The notes beneath the pieces were generated by a model. The model did not search any database. It was not told the origin of the DNA and saw nothing but the letters and a program-made list of their open reading frames with translations. From NCBI GenBank assembly GCA_003130875.1, contig QEXY01000168.1, positions 1 to 39,691 of the forward strand: 39,691 bases of DNA. Reading direction: 5' to 3'. The DNA is from Ardenticatenia bacterium (lineage in GTDB: Bacteria > Chloroflexota > Anaerolineae > 4572-78 > NAK82). This document shows positions 161 through 36,895 of this stretch, in pieces (the stretch's first letter is position 1; the number at the start of each line of letters is the position of its first letter). The position numbers were made by a program, and so were the translations under genes.

Positions 161-2056
161 ATGCCTCGCAGGGTTTCCAGCCTGGTCAGGGCTTTGATCT
201 TCGCACTTCTGCTCGCTCTGCTCATCACCACGGTCACCGTCGCTGAAGCTACCTTTCAGGAAGTGCCACCCCTTGAGGAAATTGAACTCTTTGAGAAAGA
301 CACCGGCAGCGAGGTCATCTTGAGAGAGAACCAGGTACTGGTCCTCCATCTGGAAGCCAAGCCCTCTACTGGTTATGAGTGGGTCCCAACCGATTTTGAT
401 GCCAGTGTCCTGGCGCAGGACTCGGTGGGCACGCCGCAATACGAGGGACTCTCGGAACGCCTGGGCGCACCGGCGCGCCAGCTCATACGCTTCTATTGTA
501 CTGGCGCCGGGCGCAGTGCCCTGTCCCTGGCCTACTGGCGGCCCTGGCAACGGAACATTCCCCCACGCAAGGTGTTTTCAGCCACAGTAGAATGCCTTGC
601 TCCTCTTCGTCCCGATCTCGTCCCTGCACCAACAAGCCCGCCGTCACCTTTGCCTCAGGAGACGCCCGAACTCGGTATCGGGGCTCTTTCCTTGCCTTCA
701 CATTTCAACTGGTGCGAGACATACACCTGTCCCTCGATTCGAGATCAGGACGAGTGCGGCGCCTGTTGGGCCTTTGGTACGGTAGGCGTCTTGGAAATAG
801 CGATCCGCATTAAGGATGGCGTATTAAGAGACTTGTCCGAACAATATCTGCTTTCCTGCAACACAGACGACTGGGGTTGTAATGGAGGGCGATGGGCGCA
901 TGATTACCACTGGTGGAAAATGGGTCGCAATCAAACCGCAGCAGGCGCAGTGTATGAAAGCGATTTTCCCTATCGGGGTTGGGAGGTGCCATGCACCACC
1001 GCCTACGCACACCACGAGAAGATAAGCGATTGGTCCTATGTGACCGGTGCCGAGGAGGCAATCCCAACCAATTCCGCGCTCAAGCAGGCCATCTATGCCT
1101 ACGGGCCGGTGGCGGCGACGGTGTGCGCTGGAAGCGCATTTCGCAACTACAGTGGGGGTATATTCGGCACCGATGAGTCAGGGACTTGCACACAGTATCC
1201 TGTCAACCATGGCGTCGTTCTGACCGGCTGGGACGATGGACTGGGGATATGGTATTTGCGCAACTCGTGGGGTACAGGATGGGGAGAGAACGGCTGGATG
1301 CGCATCCGCTACGGAACTTCGCGGATCGGTTATAATGCCACCTACATCGCGTATAGTAGTTCACCACCTCCTACCGCTGTGCCCACTACCCCGCCACCCA
1401 CGCCATCTGTAAGGCATGTCTACCTGCCGGTGGTCTCCAGGGCGCCCCTACCGCTGCTGAACGGGAACTTCGAGCAGGGGCGAACGGCATGGTATGAATA
1501 TTCCTCGCACGGCTGGCAGCTGATTGTGCCAAGGTCAGCACTCCCGGGCGACGTCTCTCCTCACAGCGGTAACTGGGCGGTCTGGCTGGGTGGAGATTAC
1601 AATGAGATCTCGTTCATCCGCCAGCAAGTGACCATACCAACGGGTAACCACTATCTGCACTACTGGCATTGGATCGCCTCCAAGGATGCTTGCGGTTATG
1701 ACTTCGGCAGGGTCATCATTAACAACACGGTGGTCGATGTGTACAATCTATGTACCAGCCGGAACACCAATGGCTGGGTACGCCACATCGTTAATCTCAG
1801 CAGTTATGCCGGTCAGACCGTTTTCTTGCAAATTCGTGCCGAGACGGATGGCTCGCTCAATAGCAACTTGTTCGTGGACGATGTCTCCTTCCAGAGCTGG
1901 GGTGCAGCCGGCACGGAGGAGGTGATGCCATTCGGAGAGACTGTATCAGCCGAGAGCGCGGCAAAGTCAGAGGCGTCAGGGATGATGCGTGCGGCCGGTG
2001 TAGCCCCGGACCAGCCGCGACTACTTCCAACACCTTCCTCGAGCGAAAAACATTAG
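161..2056 (+). CDS. Secreted papain-family cysteine protease with N-terminal chagasin-like inhibitor domain and C-terminal jelly-roll-like domain
   Basis: This 631-residue protein starts at an ATG 9 bases after AAGGAGG (145-151) and has a signal peptide (about 1-29). Residues about 42-146 resemble the I42 chagasin family of cysteine-protease inhibitors: KPSTGYEW at 67-74 matches the NPTTGY loop and RPW at 127-129 the third binding loop. After a Pro-rich linker, residues about 170-395 form a C1A papain domain with oxyanion Gln196, nucleophile Cys202 (in CGACWAF), His350 (in VNHGV) and Asn368 (in RNSWG). A second PT linker leads to about 170 residues (NGNFEQG onward, ending in FVDDVSF) that look like a beta-sandwich carbohydrate- or protein-binding domain. 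It is probably an exported protease. The family's usual helical propeptide is absent, so the inhibitor domain may hold the enzyme latent; that is inference. Confidence 0.9.
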   Translation: MPRRVSSLVRALIFALLLALLITTVTVAEATFQEVPPLEEIELFEKDTGSEVILRENQVLVLHLEAKPSTGYEWVPTDFDASVLAQDSVGTPQYEGLSERLGAPARQLIRFYCTGAGRSALSLAYWRPWQRNIPPRKVFSATVECLAPLRPDLVPAPTSPPSPLPQETPELGIGALSLPSHFNWCETYTCPSIRDQDECGACWAFGTVGVLEIAIRIKDGVLRDLSEQYLLSCNTDDWGCNGGRWAHDYHWWKMGRNQTAAGAVYESDFPYRGWEVPCTTAYAHHEKISDWSYVTGAEEAIPTNSALKQAIYAYGPVAATVCAGSAFRNYSGGIFGTDESGTCTQYPVNHGVVLTGWDDGLGIWYLRNSWGTGWGENGWMRIRYGTSRIGYNATYIAYSSSPPPTAVPTTPPPTPSVRHVYLPVVSRAPLPLLNGNFEQGRTAWYEYSSHGWQLIVPRSALPGDVSPHSGNWAVWLGGDYNEISFIRQQVTIPTGNHYLHYWHWIASKDACGYDFGRVIINNTVVDVYNLCTSRNTNGWVRHIVNLSSYAGQTVFLQIRAETDGSLNSNLFVDDVSFQSWGAAGTEEVMPFGETVSAESAAKSEASGMMRAAGVAPDQPRLLPTPSSSEKH

Positions 2057-13501: not shown

Positions 13502-15166
13502 TCACTTGTACATCCGGTTGCGGATTTGTGGATCCAGCGGTAACGCCGATTCACGTTCGCGGCGGGTGCGCTCAGTTTGCGAGAGATACTCTCGCCAACG
13601 TTTTGGCGCATCGGGATCCTCAGCGCCGTGGCGGGTGATACGCTGACGCACACGGCATAACAACGGTGTGTTCACCGCACTGCCGGCGATGATCACCTGT
13701 CCCTTGGACAAGGCCGGCAGCTCTTGCAACAGGTCTCGCCCCACCGATTCGACGCTCTCCGCGATGCGCGCCTGATCAATCGGGTTAACGATGCGCATGA
13801 TACATTGCGTCATACATTGAGATAGCACATCGCTATCCAGCTTGCCAGGGCGCTGGCTGATCAGTCCCACTGCGACCCCAAATTTGCGCCCCTCGGATAG
13901 GATGGTCTTGAGAATGCCAGTGGTGACCACTTCTGCATTCGCCGGAGCGTAGTTATGCGCCTCTTCGATGAGAACAAAGGCCGGGTAGGGCAGATAAGTA
14001 TCCTCACCCTCTTTCGAACGACCTTTTTCGGTTTCCATCCGTGCTCGCCACAAGCGGCGCAGCAATGTTGCGACGACCAGCTGCTGTTCGCGTTGGTCGA
14101 TCTCATTCAGCGGCAAAACGGTGCATTGCCCCGGCCGAAACAGTTCTACCAAGGACATGTTCTGATAGTCATGAAAGATCTTCGATCCCTGGAACACACT
14201 CTGAACCCGCCATAGCAATGCTCCAGTCGTGGGATCTTCCTCCAGCTCGACATCTGCCTGAGGATCTGTGACGCTGTGCTCCCCGTCTTTGCTGCGCAAC
14301 ATAGTCATGAAGTCGCCCAAGGTCCAGTTATCGCGATATTTATGACGCACGGCATAGTAGGTCTGACCCAAGCGGTAGTGCATCTTCTCCGAGAGGTTGG
14401 GCAGCAAATAACGAAAGTCGCTCAATTCGAGCGAGGAAATTCGCACGCGAATTTCGTCAGGACGGACAATGCGTATCTCAGGCTGATAATCCTCGGTGCA
14501 AAACTCGGGGCGTCCCATTATCTCCCTCAGTGTGCTGTACTCACCGTGCGGGTCAACAATCAATACGCAAGCCTGGTTGTACGGTTTCATCAGCTCCTCG
14601 ATGAGCACTGCAGCCAGATAGCTCTTGCCCGCGCCGGTGCCGGCGATGATAGCCAGATGGGTGCTGGTGATGCTGCGCACGTCTAAATTAACATGCACAG
14701 CGCCGGGATCGCGGCTCAGTAACCAGCCGATGTAAGCAGAGCCGACTTCACCGCTCTGCTTCTTGGAGAGCACCTGTGTCAATAGCGCATCCTCTGCGAT
14801 GTAGATGGGACTGCCGGGTTCGGGCGGCACGCGGGGGTTGACAAAATCACCCAGCTCCGGCTGATAGTAGCCCATCACCACCACGGTCACCTCAGAGAGC
14901 TCGTAGTGTTGTTCTCGGAAGCCCAGCATCGCAGCGATTTCAGCGGGAGGCACGCTGGGATCCGCCATAAAAGTGTCGGGGTAGAGGCGCAATGGGACGC
15001 GCCGCGTGACCCGCCCCAGAATTTGACGCGGTTTGCCTTCCACCTCCATTTCATAATAGACAAACTCTCCCACCTTAACGTGCCGTTCTGGATCGGGCGT
15101 TATAAAGGTGTATTCGTGTGCCGATTCACCAGGACCTTTCGTCGTGCCGATACATTGTCTGTCCAT
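13502..15166 (-). CDS. herA: HerA-family DNA translocase/helicase ATPase
   Basis: This 554-residue protein starts at an ATG 7 bases after GAGG. Residues about 18-60 look like the HAS-barrel that opens HerA proteins (KVGEFVYYEM, ILGRVTRR). The RecA-like motor has Walker A GTGAGKS at 176-182, VDPHGEYSTL shortly after, and a Walker B with catalytic Glu in FVLIEEAHNYAP. SQRPGKLDSDV and IMRIVNPIDQARI are the C-terminal HerA signature segments. HerA forms a hexamer that moves on double-stranded DNA and works with the NurA nuclease in end resection, usually alongside Mre11/Rad50. Here it is the last gene of a nurA, HAS-barrel, herA operon; no mre11 or rad50 is in the window. Confidence 0.92.
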   Translation of the reverse strand: MDRQCIGTTKGPGESAHEYTFITPDPERHVKVGEFVYYEMEVEGKPRQILGRVTRRVPLRLYPDTFMADPSVPPAEIAAMLGFREQHYELSEVTVVVMGYYQPELGDFVNPRVPPEPGSPIYIAEDALLTQVLSKKQSGEVGSAYIGWLLSRDPGAVHVNLDVRSITSTHLAIIAGTGAGKSYLAAVLIEELMKPYNQACVLIVDPHGEYSTLREIMGRPEFCTEDYQPEIRIVRPDEIRVRISSLELSDFRYLLPNLSEKMHYRLGQTYYAVRHKYRDNWTLGDFMTMLRSKDGEHSVTDPQADVELEEDPTTGALLWRVQSVFQGSKIFHDYQNMSLVELFRPGQCTVLPLNEIDQREQQLVVATLLRRLWRARMETEKGRSKEGEDTYLPYPAFVLIEEAHNYAPANAEVVTTGILKTILSEGRKFGVAVGLISQRPGKLDSDVLSQCMTQCIMRIVNPIDQARIAESVESVGRDLLQELPALSKGQVIIAGSAVNTPLLCRVRQRITRHGAEDPDAPKRWREYLSQTERTRRERESALPLDPQIRNRMYK

Positions 15167-15258
15167 CCGATATCCTCGCCGTCAACCGAATCAAACCTTT
15201 AGCTCGATACATCCCACCTCTGAACCAATCAGGCAGAGGGCAGACGATAACTGGTCAT

Positions 15259-15846
15259 CTATCCTGCTGGGGTCACCACTGCCTTCCAGGCGAGATTGCC
15301 GCGCAGGACAGCCAGCTGGCGCTTTTGATCCGGGAACAGCGCGATCAGCTGTTCCACCACTTTGAGCAGCAGGTGAGGCGCAATCACATCCTTCTCCGCC
15401 AACAATCTAGGCATATACGCCAGAGATAGGCGACCACTAGGTGCATGGAAATGACGGATCTCCCCCGGTGACATCGTCTCCACGGCTGCATTCACCGCGG
15501 CCGCCAGCAAGGGTACTCCCTGGTAAATCTCCCCGTCTCGCGTCACCTGTCCGACAGCCAGAATGCTCACCAGCGTGGCTTGCTCGCGCAAATAGTCCGG
15601 CGAGAAAATCTCCAGGTCGCTCGGAGGTGATAAACGGGGTCCCAGATTGCCGAATTCAGGGTTCATCAGGATGGTGTTGTAAATGAGACCCACCAAATAA
15701 CCCGATCCATTGCCAAGCTCAATGCGCACGAAGGTGCCAAAGGCGTAGTCGTGAGGTTGCGGAAGGGTGCTGAACTCTCCCGGATTGTTTATCTGGCACA
15801 CGTAATCCACCTGGCTGTTCGATTTGACGATTTTACCGATTTGCAT
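15259..15846 (-). CDS. Stand-alone HAS-barrel-like protein between nurA and herA
   Basis: The ATG at 15846 is chosen because AGGAG sits 8 bases before it; an in-frame GTG at 15855 lies directly on that Shine-Dalgarno. The protein is 195 residues. Its first 60 residues (IGKIVKSNSQVDYVCQI, then GTFVRIELGNGSGYLVGLIYN) have the strand pattern of the HAS-barrel shared by HerA and F1-ATPase subunits. The remainder is mixed alpha/beta with no motif known to me; there is no Walker motif. It lies 36 bases after nurA and about 92 before herA, all on one strand, so it probably acts with the NurA-HerA machine as an adaptor or loading factor. That role is inferred from position and fold only. Confidence 0.75.
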   Translation of the reverse strand: MQIGKIVKSNSQVDYVCQINNPGEFSTLPQPHDYAFGTFVRIELGNGSGYLVGLIYNTILMNPEFGNLGPRLSPPSDLEIFSPDYLREQATLVSILAVGQVTRDGEIYQGVPLLAAAVNAAVETMSPGEIRHFHAPSGRLSLAYMPRLLAEKDVIAPHLLLKVVEQLIALFPDQKRQLAVLRGNLAWKAVVTPAG

Positions 15847-15882
15847 AGACAGCACTCCTGGATCGTTCTCTGAAAGCCCCCG

Positions 15883-17094
15883 TCACCGGCGGATTGCCTT
15901 ACTGCGCGCCTTGCGCGAGTAGCGCAATAGCAGACCCTCCTTCTGTGCGAATTGTTGAAAAACTGCGTAGAAACGTTGGCGGTCCTCTGCAGATAGGACC
16001 GCCACTGCATCGGCGGTCTCCAGAACATACGGGTAGCCGTTTCCTACCACGCACTCGGCCCGAATCAGGTCGAAAATGTGCTCCAGCCTCGTGTGATCCT
16101 CTAACAACCAGCCCGGAAACTCCACGCGGGCTGGTGGAGCGGTCGCGCTGGTCTTGAGATACGCGAAGGCAATGCGACCTACCTGCGTCTCATAAAGCGG
16201 CAACACTTCGTCATCACGCGCACACCAATATACTTGGCTGCGATCTCCCCAACGCATCAAGGGATGGAGCAACATCCCGTCATTGAGATGGGCAGGCATG
16301 GGCACTCCTGCGACGAGTGACAACATTGTGGTCAAATCGTGTGCGTAGCTGCTGTCCACATAGCCGATGAGAGGCACACCGGTGATTTGCGAGGTGCGCA
16401 GTAAATCCACAATGGCCTCAAGGTAGTCTTGCCGCAGCGGAGGGCTTAGGTGACGTGCAAAGGAGATGGTCAGCGAACCGTCAAAGAAACACAAGGGCTT
16501 GGGATCACAAGTGGCACGTTCCTGCATATACGTGACAATACGTTGGCATTCCCCCTGGAAGCGGCGTAGATTGACCAGGATGCCGGGAAACGTGCTGCTG
16601 CCAAGTGTCTGGTCAGCAGTTTCGGTGATCTCCTCGTATGTTGCCAGCTCGTCCGGCGTCAGCACCTCAAAGAAAAGGTCCTTAACATACGGTCGGGAAG
16701 GGGTATGGGGATTCTCGAACCAGCCGATCTGAATCGCGGCCACGGGGATCGAAAAGTCACGCGATTGCGGAATCTGCGAGCCATCTACGGCGAAAGTCGG
16801 CTGACCATGCAAAACCCGCTTGGCCCATACACGGGCTTCTTCATGGGTGTTCCACCGGGCATCGAAGCGAACTATGACGCTATGCGTCTGATCGTGCTCA
16901 TATGTAGGTAAGGCGCCCGGACGTGCCACCCCGCTTGCTGCTAGACGTGCCTCGATCTCGGCCTGGGTGAGGGAGGCAATATACGCAAGCGTTTCATCAA
17001 ATCTGGCGATATGCTCGCGCACACCCCCCTGATACCGGGAGAAATGTGCCTTTTTTGCCTCAAGGGCGTTGATCACACGGCTACGTACCAACAT
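15883..17094 (-). CDS. nurA: NurA-family 5'-3' nuclease
   Basis: The frame is open from an ATG at 17127, but an extended -10 box at 17140-17148 would put the transcript start almost on that codon, so the ATG at 17094 (403 residues) is preferred. NurA features are visible: FAVDGSQIP (Asp at about residue 104), CFFDGSLTISFA and LIGYVDSSYA, whose Asp residues match the RNase H-like metal-binding acids of NurA. NurA is a Mn-dependent nuclease that docks onto the HerA hexamer and degrades DNA as HerA feeds it. The C-terminal end is basic (RYSRKARSKAIRR), suited to DNA contact. It is the first gene of the operon with the HAS-barrel protein and herA. Confidence 0.88.
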   Translation of the reverse strand: MLVRSRVINALEAKKAHFSRYQGGVREHIARFDETLAYIASLTQAEIEARLAASGVARPGALPTYEHDQTHSVIVRFDARWNTHEEARVWAKRVLHGQPTFAVDGSQIPQSRDFSIPVAAIQIGWFENPHTPSRPYVKDLFFEVLTPDELATYEEITETADQTLGSSTFPGILVNLRRFQGECQRIVTYMQERATCDPKPLCFFDGSLTISFARHLSPPLRQDYLEAIVDLLRTSQITGVPLIGYVDSSYAHDLTTMLSLVAGVPMPAHLNDGMLLHPLMRWGDRSQVYWCARDDEVLPLYETQVGRIAFAYLKTSATAPPARVEFPGWLLEDHTRLEHIFDLIRAECVVGNGYPYVLETADAVAVLSAEDRQRFYAVFQQFAQKEGLLLRYSRKARSKAIRR

Positions 17095-17139
17095 GACATT
17101 CCAAGTAAGACGGAACGCATAACACAAGAATTACAATGT

Positions 17140-31603: not shown

Positions 31604-31994
31604 TCTGGCAACACCTCTGGCACTGCATAATGGGCATAACGTGTCTCACGCCGACTGACGGACGCCACCATGGTATCATGCCTTGTGTGCTGCTCAAAGT
31701 CTCATACTGCGCCGCACAAGGGTGCATTTCATCTCGGGAAAGGGTGGGAGTTCAAATCAAGCCACGCGCGTCGGTAAGGACGATCGGTCGGTCGTCCCTA
31801 CACTGTCCTTGGCGGTCGCGGCTCGGACAATCCTCGTAACTCTAGTTCACCGCTTCAACCCGCTCTCAAATTGAAGTGCACTGCCACACAAGATCTACTG
31901 GCAAACCGCTTTATTTGGTGATATGCTATGGGCTCGAAAGCTGCATATCACATCTCAGCCGCCTGATCCACGACGAAGAGGAGGTCAGAATACC
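31604..31994. other. Divergent intergenic region with palindromes, no gene seen
   Basis: About 390 bases separate the leftward molybdenum enzyme from the rightward PfkB-type kinase. It holds the inverted repeat CCTTGTG/CACAAGG (31681-31687 and 31715-31721), the REP-like palindrome at 31774-31801, and GTCC/GGAC around 31805-31830. No convincing -35/-10 pair was found. An in-frame upstream ATG at 31923 for the kinase is rejected in favour of the GTG at 31995. Confidence 0.5.
31774..31801. repeat. REP-like palindrome, copy 2
   Basis: GTAAGGACGA, an 8-base centre, then TCGTCCCTAC: a near-perfect palindrome related to the one at 22133-22161. Confidence 0.55.
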
Positions 31995-33071
31995 GTGCAT
32001 CACCAAGACCGAGCGCGCGAAGGAAGCACCTCTGTGCTGAGCCGTACCCGTCTGAAGGAGATCCTGACGGCAATCCGCGATGTGCGCATTGGCATCGTGG
32101 GCGATTTCACTCTAGATGGTTACTGGTATGTGGACATGATGCGTGCCCAGCTCTCGCGTGAGGCGCCCCTGTATAACCGCCCCGTTGTGCGGGAGACGTA
32201 CTCGGCAGGCGGTTGCGCCAACGTAGCAGTGAATGTGGCCGCGCTGCAACCACGGGAGGCGTGGGCTTTCACCGTGTTGGGTGAGGATTGGCGCGGCCTG
32301 CTGCTGCGTCAAGTGCTGAGCGCCGCCGGTTTGCGTCTGGAAGCGACGCTGACCCATGCAACGAACTGGATGACCCCTTTTTACGGTAAAATGATCCTGA
32401 TGGGCTATGACAATCAGCAAGAGGATGCTCGCGTGGACTTTGTCAACATCCATCCCCTGCCAGATGTCATCCTGGATGCGATGTTGGAACAAATCGTCAG
32501 CCGCCTGTCAAGTCTGGATGCGCTCATCATCGCTGACTACCAACCGGTGGGCGTTGTACCGGAACGGGTGGTGAAAGCACTCAACCAGCTGGCTGAAACC
32601 CATCCTCGGGTGGTCTTCGCTGCGGATTCGCGCGCGAACATCGCCCAATTTGAGAGAATGGTGATCAAACCCAACTCTGTAGAGGCGACCCAGATGTGGT
32701 TTCCCGGGCAACGACCGGACGAGGTGACGGAGCAGCAGCTCGTCGCGGCCGGATTGCGTGCTCAGGCAAATACGGGCCGGCCTGTTTACATCACCTGCGG
32801 GGAACGAGGTGCGTGGTTGTGCGCGGCAGAAGGATACGCCCATATCCCAGCTATGCCAGTTGCGCCGCCCATCGATACAGTGGGTGCTGGCGACACCTTC
32901 CTGGCTGCACTGACCACTGGGCTGGCAGCAGGGGCAAGCCCGTGGGAAGCGGGTTGGTTGGCCTCTTTGGCCGCCGCGGTGACCGTCCGCAAATTGCGCA
33001 CCACCGGCACCGCCACGCCCGAGGAAATCCTGGCAGCATATGATACATATGTGCCAGGATTATCTCGCTGA
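31995..33071 (+). CDS. PfkB-family carbohydrate kinase, RfaE/HldE-like
   Basis: A GTG at 31995 lies 9 bases after a strong GAGGAGGT (31978-31985) and is chosen over the ATG at 31923; it gives 358 residues. The ribokinase-type signatures are present: IGIVGDFTLDGYWYVDM near the N-terminus, YSAGGCANVAVNVAAL, and the catalytic DTVGAGDTF near residue 300. The order GDF...SREAPL...GGCANVAVN is close to the kinase domain of RfaE/HldE, which phosphorylates heptose 7-phosphate, but without the linked nucleotidyltransferase domain and without heptose genes nearby. It may phosphorylate another sugar or sugar phosphate. Its stop lies 52 bases before the FHA gene, so the two may form one transcript. Cytoplasmic. 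Confidence 0.88.
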   Translation: MHHQDRAREGSTSVLSRTRLKEILTAIRDVRIGIVGDFTLDGYWYVDMMRAQLSREAPLYNRPVVRETYSAGGCANVAVNVAALQPREAWAFTVLGEDWRGLLLRQVLSAAGLRLEATLTHATNWMTPFYGKMILMGYDNQQEDARVDFVNIHPLPDVILDAMLEQIVSRLSSLDALIIADYQPVGVVPERVVKALNQLAETHPRVVFAADSRANIAQFERMVIKPNSVEATQMWFPGQRPDEVTEQQLVAAGLRAQANTGRPVYITCGERGAWLCAAEGYAHIPAMPVAPPIDTVGAGDTFLAALTTGLAAGASPWEAGWLASLAAAVTVRKLRTTGTATPEEILAAYDTYVPGLSR

Positions 33072-33123: not shown

Positions 33124-34095
33124 ATGCAACCGAGAATGAAACTGGTGAAACATACCGGTGAGCGAGCAGAGTACCCACTGGACGCCGAGGTGATCCATCT
33201 AGGACGCGAACAGGCACGCACCATCCCGATTGATGATCCGCTGGTCTCACGTCGGCATGCCGAAATCACCTGCGTTTCAAAAGCCCATGGCGCAAATGCC
33301 TGGGTCATCCGCGATCTCGGCTCGGCAAACGGCACCTATGTCAATGATAACCTCCTGACCGCGAGCCATCGCTTACGGGTAGGCGATCGTATCCAATTGG
33401 GCAACACGCTATTCACATATGAGGAGATGGAGAGTGGACAGCGTTTCCGCAACATTATCGCCGTCCTGATCGCTCTATCTACATTAGTAGGAGCACTGGT
33501 AGCCTGGCGGGCCAGCGTCGCAACGGACGATGCGGCAAGTGCTCGCAACGATGGCACCCATGTGTTGATCCGTCTCAGCCACTATCGGAGTGGCATCGAT
33601 GCGAGCTTGTATCAGAATCTTGGCGCGTTCGTCTCTTATCGTCTGCATTTGGGCACGATGGAGCTGCTGGATAGAGCGCTTGCCGATTCCAAAGAGAAAA
33701 CTTATACCTCCTCTCTGGAGGGTGAGCGCCTTTTCCACGCAAATATGGCGCTGGCCGCGCTGGACCTGGTCGATCAAGACTATCTGCATCGTGCCGAGAG
33801 TGCGGCAGAGCAAAGCTTCGAACGCACGCGCTTCACGGAGACGAATCTGGCAGAAGCGACCACCCTGGAAGACCTGGACTACGAAGCCCATTTCCGCGAA
33901 TCGGACCGTGCGTCGCTTATTGCACAACGACTGACCCTCACCGCTGTGCTGCTGAGCTTGTCCATCTTTTTCTACACCGGAGCCACTCTGTCGGAGAGCC
34001 GGCGCAAGTACTTTTTAGCGGCGATGGGAGTGGTGACATTTAGTCTGGGCACTTTAGTGGCGGCGCTGATCGAGCTGGCCGAACGCGCCGGCTAG
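33124..34095 (+). CDS. FHA-domain protein with C-terminal three-helix membrane part
   Basis: The ATG at 33124, 6 bases after GGGGGA, gives 323 residues. Residues about 20-98 are a forkhead-associated domain that binds phosphothreonine peptides: Gly27-Arg28, the S42-R-R-H45 motif, and SANGTYVN (67-74) with the binding-loop Asn residues. One transmembrane helix follows (IIAVLIALSTLVGALVAW, about 111-128), then a helical segment of about 150 residues, then two more helices (LTAVLLSLSIFFYTG and FLAAMGVVTFSLGTLVAALI). The FHA domain should face the cytoplasm. Neither a Ser/Thr kinase nor a phosphatase gene is in the window. The next gene has a similar membrane layout with TPRs in place of the FHA domain. 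I do not recognise a named family for the membrane part. Confidence 0.85.
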   Translation: MQPRMKLVKHTGERAEYPLDAEVIHLGREQARTIPIDDPLVSRRHAEITCVSKAHGANAWVIRDLGSANGTYVNDNLLTASHRLRVGDRIQLGNTLFTYEEMESGQRFRNIIAVLIALSTLVGALVAWRASVATDDAASARNDGTHVLIRLSHYRSGIDASLYQNLGAFVSYRLHLGTMELLDRALADSKEKTYTSSLEGERLFHANMALAALDLVDQDYLHRAESAAEQSFERTRFTETNLAEATTLEDLDYEAHFRESDRASLIAQRLTLTAVLLSLSIFFYTGATLSESRRKYFLAAMGVVTFSLGTLVAALIELAERAG

Positions 34096-34161
34096 GAGTC
34101 GAGGGCGTTGGTGGGTTATCCCATATAGGTCATTCAATACGCGATATGAGGGGTCTAGGCC

Positions 34162-35931
34162 ATGGCAGAAGCGCACGACCCAATCGATGAGGATGCAGCA
34201 CCGACGTGTCATTCCGATGTGAAAAGCCGTGACACTCGCTTCACTTGGAACCTCAACCACCTCATCATCATGCTCACCGCTGGGGTGGCCGTCTTTGCGA
34301 CCATCGTAGCGGCATTACAGACAGACGCCAACATACGTGCCAGCCAGGCCAATCGGGAGGCCCAGGCGCAAGCGCTGCGTACGCTCCAGAGCAATGTAAG
34401 CGATTTGTTTGAAGTCGGATATGACTTGCAAGTGGTCCGTCTATGGTGGTCGCAGCAGCGTCTGGCATTGAGCGCCAAGTTGCTTGCAAGCACAGAGGAG
34501 GATCCAGATCGGTCCGCATGGTATCTTCAAGAGTTACAACGCCTCGCAAGTACTTCCAAACTGCTCACCGACCAAAGCAATCTGTTCACCTCACCCTACT
34601 TCGATGTAGTGACGGGGTTATGGCCGGACTTGAACCGTTACTGGTATGAGCAGGTGGTGGCACCCCAGATGCTGGCCAGCGAGCATCAGTCCGTCCAGAT
34701 GGAACTGGGGCGTGCCTGGGGGCAGAAGGGCAATGCCTATCAGACGATCATCACCTTGGTGGCTGTAACTCTCTTCCTTTATGGGCTCGCTTTGACCGTG
34801 GAACGTTATCTGAAGTGGGGGTTTCTGGCACTGGGCAGTGCTAACCTGAGCTTCATCCTCGTGTGGACGGTGTTGACGGCGATACAGCCCATCCCCCACG
34901 TTGCGCCGCAGGCTCTAGAGGCTTATGTGGCTGGGCACATCAAAGCGATATATGCTCTTCAGGAAGAGATCCAATCCCAACACGGTGTGGCACCTGAGAA
35001 AGCGGATGAAGCCATCGCCTATCTGAGTCGCGCGATTGCGCTGCGACCCGACTATACCGCAGCCTATGTCACGCGCGGCGACGCCTATACCGTCAAGGGA
35101 GAGGCATTGTTGTTCGGCGAGGGCGATGCGACGGTGCGGGATGCCTCGTTCCGCCAGGCGGTGGCCGATTATCGACGCGCCCTGGAGCTCCAGCCCGACA
35201 GCTATCATACCTATTGGAATCTCGGCTGGGCACTCTATCTCCTGGGCGAACCTGAACCGGCGCTCGAAGCGGTCCAGCGGGTCATCGAACTGTCCCCGGT
35301 GAAGCAATTTGGGGCACGTCTGGTGTTGGGCGAGATTCTGATGGGAATGGGCAACCCCCAGGAAGGGTTAGCAGAAATCCGCAGAGCAATTGAGCACGCC
35401 GCAGCACACCCGCTCAGTTCCGACGCATACTATTTCCGTCAGATGATCCGCAATTCGGAACGCCTGCAGGTCGTGCGTCCGCATCCCGGCTTGCCGGAGA
35501 GCACCCTGTTGCTCAAGGAAGCGTTCGTCTCGTTGCAGTACCGCGGCAAGCCTTATCCTGGCAGTACCCGTGCTCAAATCACCCATCTCGCCTTTGGGGT
35601 ACCTATGGTTGAACGTGCCGGCAAAGTGACCCAATATTGGATCAGCGATCACTTTCCCGCGAATACCGAGCAGGTGAACGTGTTGTTTGACTATCAGGAT
35701 ATGGTCGAGGGTGAACAGGTGGTGCTCAAGGTTTACTACAATGGGGTGGAACGACCGTTCTACCACCAGATCCTGACCTGGCATAACGGCGCGAGCGGCC
35801 GCTGTGACTATCTGGCGGTCAGAACACCGGTACAGCACACGCCGTTCGGGCTATTACCCGGACGTTATCGCGTCGAAATTTATGTGGAAGGCAATTTGCG
35901 CGCCTCAGGCGAGTTTATCGTGGAGAGTTGA
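34162..35931 (+). CDS. Membrane protein with TPR domain, partner of the FHA protein
   Basis: This 589-residue protein starts at an ATG 66 bases after the FHA gene; a GAGGGG lies about 9 bases upstream. A hydrophilic start of about 30 residues leads to a transmembrane helix (LIIMLTAGVAVFATIVAAL), a long helical segment, and two helices close together (TIITLVAVTLFLYGLALTVE and FLALGSANLSFILVWTVLTA). This order matches the membrane part of the FHA protein. TPR repeats follow from about residue 275: DEAIAYLSRAIALRPDY, VADYRRALELQPDSYHTYWN and ALEAVQRVIELSP. The last 150 residues are beta-rich, ending in PGRYRVEIYVEGNLRASGEF, like a small Ig-type domain. The pair probably forms one membrane complex. 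Function unknown. Confidence 0.8.
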   Translation: MAEAHDPIDEDAAPTCHSDVKSRDTRFTWNLNHLIIMLTAGVAVFATIVAALQTDANIRASQANREAQAQALRTLQSNVSDLFEVGYDLQVVRLWWSQQRLALSAKLLASTEEDPDRSAWYLQELQRLASTSKLLTDQSNLFTSPYFDVVTGLWPDLNRYWYEQVVAPQMLASEHQSVQMELGRAWGQKGNAYQTIITLVAVTLFLYGLALTVERYLKWGFLALGSANLSFILVWTVLTAIQPIPHVAPQALEAYVAGHIKAIYALQEEIQSQHGVAPEKADEAIAYLSRAIALRPDYTAAYVTRGDAYTVKGEALLFGEGDATVRDASFRQAVADYRRALELQPDSYHTYWNLGWALYLLGEPEPALEAVQRVIELSPVKQFGARLVLGEILMGMGNPQEGLAEIRRAIEHAAAHPLSSDAYYFRQMIRNSERLQVVRPHPGLPESTLLLKEAFVSLQYRGKPYPGSTRAQITHLAFGVPMVERAGKVTQYWISDHFPANTEQVNVLFDYQDMVEGEQVVLKVYYNGVERPFYHQILTWHNGASGRCDYLAVRTPVQHTPFGLLPGRYRVEIYVEGNLRASGEFIVES

Positions 35932-36020: not shown

Positions 36021-36626
36021 TCACATTGAGAGGATGATCAAAATCAAGAAGGGCACAGCTGTGGTGAGTACGATGCCGCTGAACAGAGCGGCAATGGAAT
36101 ACTCCTTGCCGGAGAAGCGCACGATGATCGGCAAGGTGGAGTCCATAGCGGTGGCGCCGCCAGAGGCAATTGGCGCCAATTTGCCGAAAAGACGCACCAG
36201 CAGGGGGGCGAGCACCAACGTAGCGATCTCACGCATGAGATTGGCAAGCAATGCAACCACTCCTAACGTCTCGCCGCGCGTCTGGGTGAGGAGCACGCTA
36301 GAGAGGCTGTAGTAGCCGAACCCGGCACCCACTGCTAACGCATCTCGCAATGGGAGTGTGGGCAACACCGGGGAGACGGCAGCAACGCCGAACAGCGTCC
36401 CGATTATCACCAGCAAAGGCAGCAGCGCCAGACGAAGGTTGTCCCGCTGCCGTATGGTCTGCCAGAGGTGATGATCGCCCCCCACGCTGACACCAACAAA
36501 CAACAGGAGAGCACACAGGAGGTAGAGAGTGTATCGATCCAGCTCCAACGGGGAAGGCAAAGGCGCCAGCCGACCTGTCAGGATGCCCGCTACAAAGCAT
36601 ACCAGAATGATGAGGCTGCTCTTCAT
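36021..36626 (-). CDS. LysO-type lysine exporter, C-terminal part (separate gene)
   Basis: This 201-residue integral membrane protein has many hydrophobic helices. VGAGFGYYSLSSVLLTQTRG, VALLANLMREIATLV and GGATAMDSTLPIIVRFSG are hallmarks of the LysO (YbjE, DUF340) family. E. coli LysO exports lysine and is a single chain of about 300 residues; here the function is split, with the first helices in the 90-residue gene directly upstream. The two genes overlap by 4 bases, so the subunits are made together and probably assemble into one transporter. The arrangement is known in other bacteria. Lysine or thialysine as substrate is by family only. The gene ends convergent with the TPR gene. Confidence 0.88.
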   Translation of the reverse strand: MKSSLIILVCFVAGILTGRLAPLPSPLELDRYTLYLLCALLLFVGVSVGGDHHLWQTIRQRDNLRLALLPLLVIIGTLFGVAAVSPVLPTLPLRDALAVGAGFGYYSLSSVLLTQTRGETLGVVALLANLMREIATLVLAPLLVRLFGKLAPIASGGATAMDSTLPIIVRFSGKEYSIAALFSGIVLTTAVPFLILIILSM

Positions 36627-36895
36627 CGTTTCCTTCTCGTTGACAAGCTGAGCAGCTGGACAGCGGCCACACTGCCGATGATCGCGCCTGATGTCAAAAT
36701 GGCAGCTTGCAATCCCAACGTCCCGAAGTGCGCCAATGCCTCTTGGTTAAGACCCACCGAGAGACCCAACACGAACAAGAGGAACAGGATGCTCACCATT
36801 GCCAGCTGGTCTGCCAGGCGGATCAGCGATGAATGAGCGCGCAGCAGGCGACCCAACAGGATGCCGATGGCGAAGAAAAGCACGATGATCCACAT
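36623..36895 (-). CDS. LysO-type exporter, N-terminal part (separate gene)
   Basis: This 90-residue membrane protein has about three helices: WIIVLFFAIGILLGRLLR, MVSILFLLFVLGLSVGLN and LQAAILTSGAIIGSVAAVQLL. The segment LLFVLGLSVG matches the first half of LysO/YbjE. Its stop overlaps the ATG of the larger partner by 4 bases. It heads the two-gene operon, whose promoter lies at 36934-36962 and is arranged back-to-back with the PfkB-type kinase gene at 36991. Neither half would be expected to transport alone. The short basic tail (STRRKR) fits the positive-inside rule. Confidence 0.82.
   Translation of the reverse strand: MWIIVLFFAIGILLGRLLRAHSSLIRLADQLAMVSILFLLFVLGLSVGLNQEALAHFGTLGLQAAILTSGAIIGSVAAVQLLSLSTRRKR

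What the first reader, a model, noticed from the sequence alone, without database searches (positions are those of the whole stretch)
33124..35931. FHA and TPR membrane proteins with matching membrane parts, a possible new signalling pair
Both proteins have one helix after the N-terminal domain, about 150 residues of helix, then two close helices. The last two helices line up by eye: SIFFYTGATLSESRRKYFLA in the FHA protein and TLFLYGLALTVERYLKWGFL in the TPR protein. One carries an FHA phosphothreonine reader, the other TPRs and a C-terminal beta domain. No kinase or phosphatase is nearby, and they follow a PfkB-type sugar kinase gene at short spacing. This looks like a duplicated membrane module given different sensory ends.
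Basis: partly seen in the sequence, partly recalled or inferred. Interest (0 to 1): 0.6.

Follow-up and report, generated by a model that had tools for sequence, protein, structure and literature searches.

The report
Paired membrane proteins with FHA/TPR arms
Two neighbouring genes encode related membrane proteins that have travelled together as a pair through many Chloroflexota bacteria; in this genus one partner has gained a phosphothreonine-reading FHA domain inside the cell, while the other carries protein-binding arms predicted to lie outside, so together they look like a membrane-spanning docking or regulatory unit of unknown trigger.

Summary
A (FHA protein, 33124-34095) and B (TPR protein, 34162-35931) share a membrane module: TM1, ~135 mostly helical residues, TM2-TM3. 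A tree places all A and all B modules in two separate groups, so the duplication is ancient. All 39 loci found with B have A directly upstream; A and B distances correlate at r=0.92 over 57 pairs. AlphaFold2 of the read-through A+B membrane parts gives pLDDT 86.9, pTM 0.79, with no solved structure alike. Charges put the helical domain and B's TPR/Ig-like arm outside and FHA inside. The FHA is not ancestral: 3 of 72 A frames have it, all in this genus; 17 pairs lack both arms. B is distantly similar to DUF4337. The PfkB neighbour is genus-specific. A CASTOR/POLLUX-type channel gene adjoins the pair in 5 genomes, but this genus has none. Best reading: an obligate heteromeric membrane scaffold or receptor, here joined to Thr phosphorylation (seven Ser/Thr kinases elsewhere in the genome). 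Function and FHA ligand remain inferred.

The parts
33124..34095 (+). Protein A (323 aa): cytoplasmic FHA domain plus membrane module
   Evidence: ORF with GGGGGAG upstream of ATG 33124; FHA Pfam E 1.2e-19; A-module profile; low dN (0.08 FHA, 0.18 module; dS saturated) against the same-genus orthologue
33166..33420 (+). FHA domain region (residues ~15-99); pThr-binding signature G27-R28, S42, H45, N69-G70 kept
   Evidence: found only in this genus, 3 of 72 A frames
33421..34092 (+). A membrane module: TM1 (res 110-128), extracytoplasmic helical domain, TM2 (265-283), TM3 (298-316)
34162..35931 (+). Protein B (589 aa): membrane module, then TPRs, then Ig-like beta domain
34237..34917 (+). B membrane module: TM1 (res 34-52), helical domain, TM2 (195-213), TM3 (220-238); homologous to the A module and distantly similar to DUF4337
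   Evidence: hhalign 99% to A, 92% to DUF4337
34960..35440 (+). TPR region of B (residues ~267-426), predicted extracytoplasmic
   Evidence: Pfam TPR hits in 280-430; topology
35449..35928 (+). C-terminal Ig-like beta-sandwich of B, with a leading helix
   Evidence: AF2 pLDDT 90.5, pTM 0.84; Foldseek hits to Ig-like folds
31923..33071 (+). PfkB-family kinase (HldE-N-like) upstream, conserved beside the pair in this genus only
   Evidence: synteny in L043 and L170

Best explanation
A and B are the two subunits of an obligate heteromeric membrane complex built from an anciently duplicated module (N-terminus inside, TM1 continuing as a long helix into an extracytoplasmic helical bundle, TM2, short positive cytoplasmic loop, TM3, C-terminus outside). 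B presents TPR plus Ig-like arms outside to bind protein or envelope partners. In this genus A gained a cytoplasmic FHA domain that most likely docks a threonine-phosphorylated partner, or a Ser/Thr kinase, onto the complex, so that the unit links an outside binding event or assembly state to the cell's Thr-phosphorylation network. Shown by computation: module homology, pairing, co-inheritance, domain make-up, FHA signature residues. Predicted: topology, fold and A-B contact. Inferred: binding partners, direction of signal, and that it signals at all rather than scaffolds.
For: Homology of modules 99%, E 3.9e-19, with controls. Single ancient duplication: A clade 99/98, B clade 96/88. A directly upstream of B in 39 of 39 loci found with B, and in 57 distinct loci overall. 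Mirror-tree r 0.92, best of 2000 permutations 0.14; within the window genus, the two pairs of each genome keep their partners. Read-through A+B model pTM 0.79, pLDDT 86.9, a value that suggests a confident relative placement of the halves. Charge pattern: TM2-TM3 loop K/R 0.21-0.22 against D/E 0.03-0.07, middle domain net -7 to -8. The C-terminal domain also sits behind a TM helix and an S/T/P-rich linker before a TolB-like propeller in another protein of the genome, as expected for an outside domain. FHA keeps G27-R28, S42, H45, N69 and is more conserved than the A module (85% against 74%). Seven Ser/Thr kinases in the genome, one with its own FHA.
Against: No enzymatic or effector domain, no kinase or phosphatase in the neighbourhood, no experiment. 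The fused model has an artificial covalent linker, only nine of its 45 rows are paired, and no PAE was available; stoichiometry is unknown. The mirror-tree correlation also contains shared species history. FHA domains in membrane proteins can lack phosphopeptide binding (EssC, PMC4925161), although here the residues are present. FHA occurs in one genus only, so it is not the core function.
Confidence: 0.55

Rival explanations
1. The A-B pair is primarily an accessory or regulatory complex of ion channels of the CASTOR/POLLUX (RCK-type) family; the FHA version in this genus is a derivative acting on another target.
For: A channel gene adjoins the pair on the same strand in 5 of 58 pair genomes, from different families: channel-A-B with gaps of about 35-280 nt in G509, G600, L047 and L103, and A-B-channel in L100; about 0.03 expected by chance, P about 4e-10 under random placement. 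The channel is commoner in pair genomes (12 of 26) than in others (31 of 270), Fisher P 4e-5.
Against: 24 of 58 pair genomes, including all three of the window genus, show no channel homologue; most pairs with a channel in the genome are not beside it. The Fisher test is not corrected for relatedness.
Confidence: 0.2
2. The pair is a structural envelope scaffold (protein-protein hub outside, FHA only for localisation or assembly), without signalling.
For: No catalytic domain; TPR and Ig-like domains are generic protein-binding parts; pairs with no arms at all exist; no conserved pathway neighbour across most loci.
Against: FHA with intact signature residues and strong sequence conservation suggests a phosphorylation-dependent step.
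Confidence: 0.2
3. The membrane parts only look alike because both are hydrophobic helical hairpins (convergence), and the two genes are neighbours by chance.
For: Pairwise BLASTP E 0.17.
Against: Profile E 3.9e-19 against controls of 1e-3 or worse; three unrelated TM families give at most 1.4%; pair conserved in 57 loci.
Confidence: 0.02

Closest known systems
DUF4337 (PF14235), membrane protein family of unknown function
   Same: N-terminal TM, helical middle, two C-terminal TMs; B profile matches at 92% (E 5e-7, 174 columns) against at most 5% in controls; branches next to B in a tree drawn without a true root
   Different: A matches only weakly (5-70%, short); Pfam matches of single members are few and weak; the seven DUF4337 members fetched are about 190-210 aa without TPR or FHA; whether they pair was not tested; no PF14235 hit in the window genome
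FHA-bearing bacterial membrane machines (T7SSb EssC; T6SS Fha-TssL)
   Same: Cytoplasmic FHA at a membrane complex; in T6SS, FHA binding to a pThr of an inner-membrane subunit controls secretion (PMC3953482)
   Different: No ATPase or secretion parts here; EssC FHA lacks pThr-binding residues (PMC4925161) while this FHA keeps them
CASTOR/POLLUX-type RCK channels (PF06241)
   Same: Gene next to the pair in five other genomes
   Different: Neighbour only, not homologous; absent from the window genus
4HB_MCP chemoreceptor sensor domain (PF12729)
   Same: TM1 - extracytoplasmic helical domain - TM2 layout
   Different: No profile similarity (0.5-0.8%); TM3 instead of HAMP/MCP output

Membership tests
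DUF4337 (PF14235) | Score above Pfam gathering cut-off (27 bits) | tested here: not met
   No PF14235 hit for A or B at E 0.1 (member 1); no hit in the whole genome
DUF4337 (PF14235) | Profile-profile similarity over the full module | tested here: inconclusive
   B 92%, E 5e-7, 174 columns; A 5% forward, 70% over only 22 columns in reverse
FHA domain (PF00498) | Domain match above cut-off | tested here: met
   70.9 bits against 20.7
FHA domain (PF00498) | pThr-binding residues G-R, S, H, N-G | tested here: met
   G27-R28, S42, H45, N69-G70
FHA domain (PF00498) | Binds phosphothreonine peptide | not testable with these tools
   needs binding assay
TPR protein | TPR repeats above cut-off | tested here: met
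   TPR_1 53.6 bits, TPR_2, TPR_8 and others over cut-off
4HB_MCP_1 (PF12729) | Profile similarity of the helical domain | tested here: not met
   0.5-0.8%
SLATT / DUF4231 (PF14015) | Profile similarity of TM hairpin | tested here: not met
   1.0-1.4%
8xMP (PF24838) | Profile similarity | tested here: not met
   1.2%; only single weak member hits
PADLOC defence systems | Model match | tested here: not met
   no hit for P0001 or P0002 at E 0.1

The most novel reading that the evidence does not exclude
A-B is a previously undescribed two-subunit membrane regulator used with different outputs: it acts on CASTOR/POLLUX-type ion channels in several lineages and, in this Ardenticatenia genus, was rewired to Thr phosphorylation by an FHA fusion.
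Probability: 0.2. Interest if true: 0.75.

Novelty: new variant of a known kind. Interest (0 to 1): 0.5.

Why it matters
It defines an unannotated heteropair of membrane proteins (no convincing Pfam or NCBIfam match for the module) that is inherited as a unit over large divergence. It gives DUF4337-like proteins a possible relative with accessory domains and gene context. The recurrent channel neighbour and the genus-specific FHA fusion offer two concrete, testable links to function.

Tried and rejected
Pairwise BLASTP of A and B (no signal). 4HB_MCP, SLATT and 8xMP as parent families. Defence-system models. PDB fold match for the membrane pair: none, best E 0.17; sequence profiles of A and B against PDB: nothing convincing. 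Conserved pathway neighbours: none across most loci, PfkB only in the genus. Literature: no description found for DUF4337 or for an FHA/TPR pair in Chloroflexota. The first fused alignment (A9) split TM1 of several B rows onto A and was replaced by A10. The SAKe (designed Kelch) hit of the beta domain was judged a short chance match.

Full report
Observation. The window is a whole contig (39,691 b) of a Chloroflexota genome of 3.49 Mb. A (33124-34095, 323 aa) carries an FHA domain (Pfam 1.2e-19); B (34162-35931, 589 aa) carries TPRs and a C-terminal beta domain. Each has three hydrophobic stretches in the order TM1 - helical - TM2 - TM3.

Are the membrane parts related? The two single sequences are not significantly similar (E 0.17). 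Reversed or locally shuffled profiles give 1.3-18%, and three unrelated TM families at most 1.4%. The A profile finds B members in whole genomes at E 2e-13. In a maximum-likelihood tree of 122 modules, A (58 rows, 99/98) and B (57 rows, 96/88) are each one group, so the duplication predates the spread of the pair. DUF4337 branches next to B, and B matches it at 92% (E 5e-7, controls at most 5%). A does not match it convincingly, so DUF4337 is a probable distant relative rather than a family to file this under.

Is the pair conserved? An A profile hits 17 of 400 sampled Chloroflexota genomes and about 10% of 298 class members. A scan of 84,980 species genomes with a B motif gave 39 loci, and every one has A directly upstream on the same strand. 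Over 57 pairs the A and B distance matrices correlate at 0.92 (this includes shared species history). The two pairs in each window-genus genome (window with C53; same in G001) keep their own partners. Most hosts are Anaerolineae and other Chloroflexota; two Actinomycetota MAGs, one Bacteroidetes MAG whose proteins sit beside a Chloroflexi one (possible misbinning) and two unnamed bacteria also have it.

Arms. 38 of 57 B proteins have a C-terminal extension of 311 residues or more, and 17 end within three residues of the module. FHA is on 3 of 72 A frames, all three species of the window genus. FHA signature residues are G27-R28, S42, H45, N69-G70. Between two species FHA is 85% identical, the A module 74% (dS saturated, so ratios are not quoted). 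The C-terminal domain models well (pLDDT 90.5, pTM 0.84) and resembles Ig-like beta sandwiches (PA1606, AlkC C-terminus, RhoGDI-like).

Topology. Across 57 A and 57 B modules the TM2-TM3 loop is rich in K/R (0.21-0.22 per residue) and poor in D/E (0.03-0.07), and the middle domain is strongly acidic. By the positive-inside rule FHA is cytoplasmic and the helical domain, TPR and Ig-like arm are outside. The Ig-like domain occurs in another protein of the genome after an N-terminal TM and an S/T/P-rich linker, which agrees.

Structure. A and B are in frame in the window. Reading the stops between them as Gln gave a fused A-module + B-module chain that AlphaFold2 modelled with pLDDT 86.9 and pTM 0.79 (45 rows, nine of them paired). 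TM1 continues as a helix of nearly 100 residues in A and 87 in B. Two well-folded halves of arbitrary placement would be expected to score nearer 0.5, so contact between them is predicted; this last point is my inference, as PAE was not available. No solved structure is similar.

Context. The upstream PfkB-type (HldE-N-like) gene is beside the pair in all three species of the genus, and was not seen beside it elsewhere. Clustering of neighbours found no pathway conserved across most loci. One recurrent neighbour stood out: a CASTOR/POLLUX-type RCK channel (PF06241) in five genomes of different families, four of them channel-A-B with gaps of about 35-280 nt. Random placement would give about 0.03 cases. 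The channel is also commoner in genomes with the pair (12/26 against 31/270, P 4e-5, uncorrected for relatedness). The window genus has no such channel, so it cannot explain this copy. Response regulators directly follow B in two other loci (L051, L093).

Mechanism. The best-supported reading is a heteromeric membrane complex, outside protein-binding arms on B, and here a cytoplasmic pThr reader on A. The genome has seven Ser/Thr kinases, one with its own FHA, so ligands can be made in trans. What it binds, and whether it signals or only scaffolds, is not known.

Novelty. No Pfam model covers the module convincingly, NCBIfam and PADLOC give nothing relevant, and no paper describing it was found in the open library searched. 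It is an unannotated two-subunit family, distantly tied to DUF4337, with a rare FHA fusion.

Noticed in passing
L047, L100, L103, L219, L220: CASTOR/POLLUX-type ion channel gene directly beside the A-B pair on the same strand in five genomes of different families.
   Followed up: partly
L042:7139-9650 (own genome, contig C53): Second A-B pair in the same genome, without FHA.
   Followed up: yes
L142:1417-2736: Ser/Thr kinase of the same genome with a C-terminal FHA domain (Pkinase and FHA both over cut-off), a possible partner in the phosphorylation network.
   Followed up: partly
window 161-2056: Papain-like C1 protease with an N-terminal chagasin (I42) inhibitor domain in the same ORF.
   Followed up: no
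window 13502-17127: HerA-like ATPase (DUF87) and NurA nuclease genes close together on the minus strand.
   Followed up: no
window 36021-36895: The LysO lysine exporter appears to be encoded as two overlapping ORFs of 201 and 90 aa (only the longer one was scanned).
   Followed up: no
L051:8940-9608 and L093:546-1214: Response regulator genes directly downstream of the pair, same strand.
   Followed up: partly
L047, L106, L110: A related small protein, AIM24-like from memory (not tested), encoded just downstream of the pair on the same strand in three loci.
   Followed up: no
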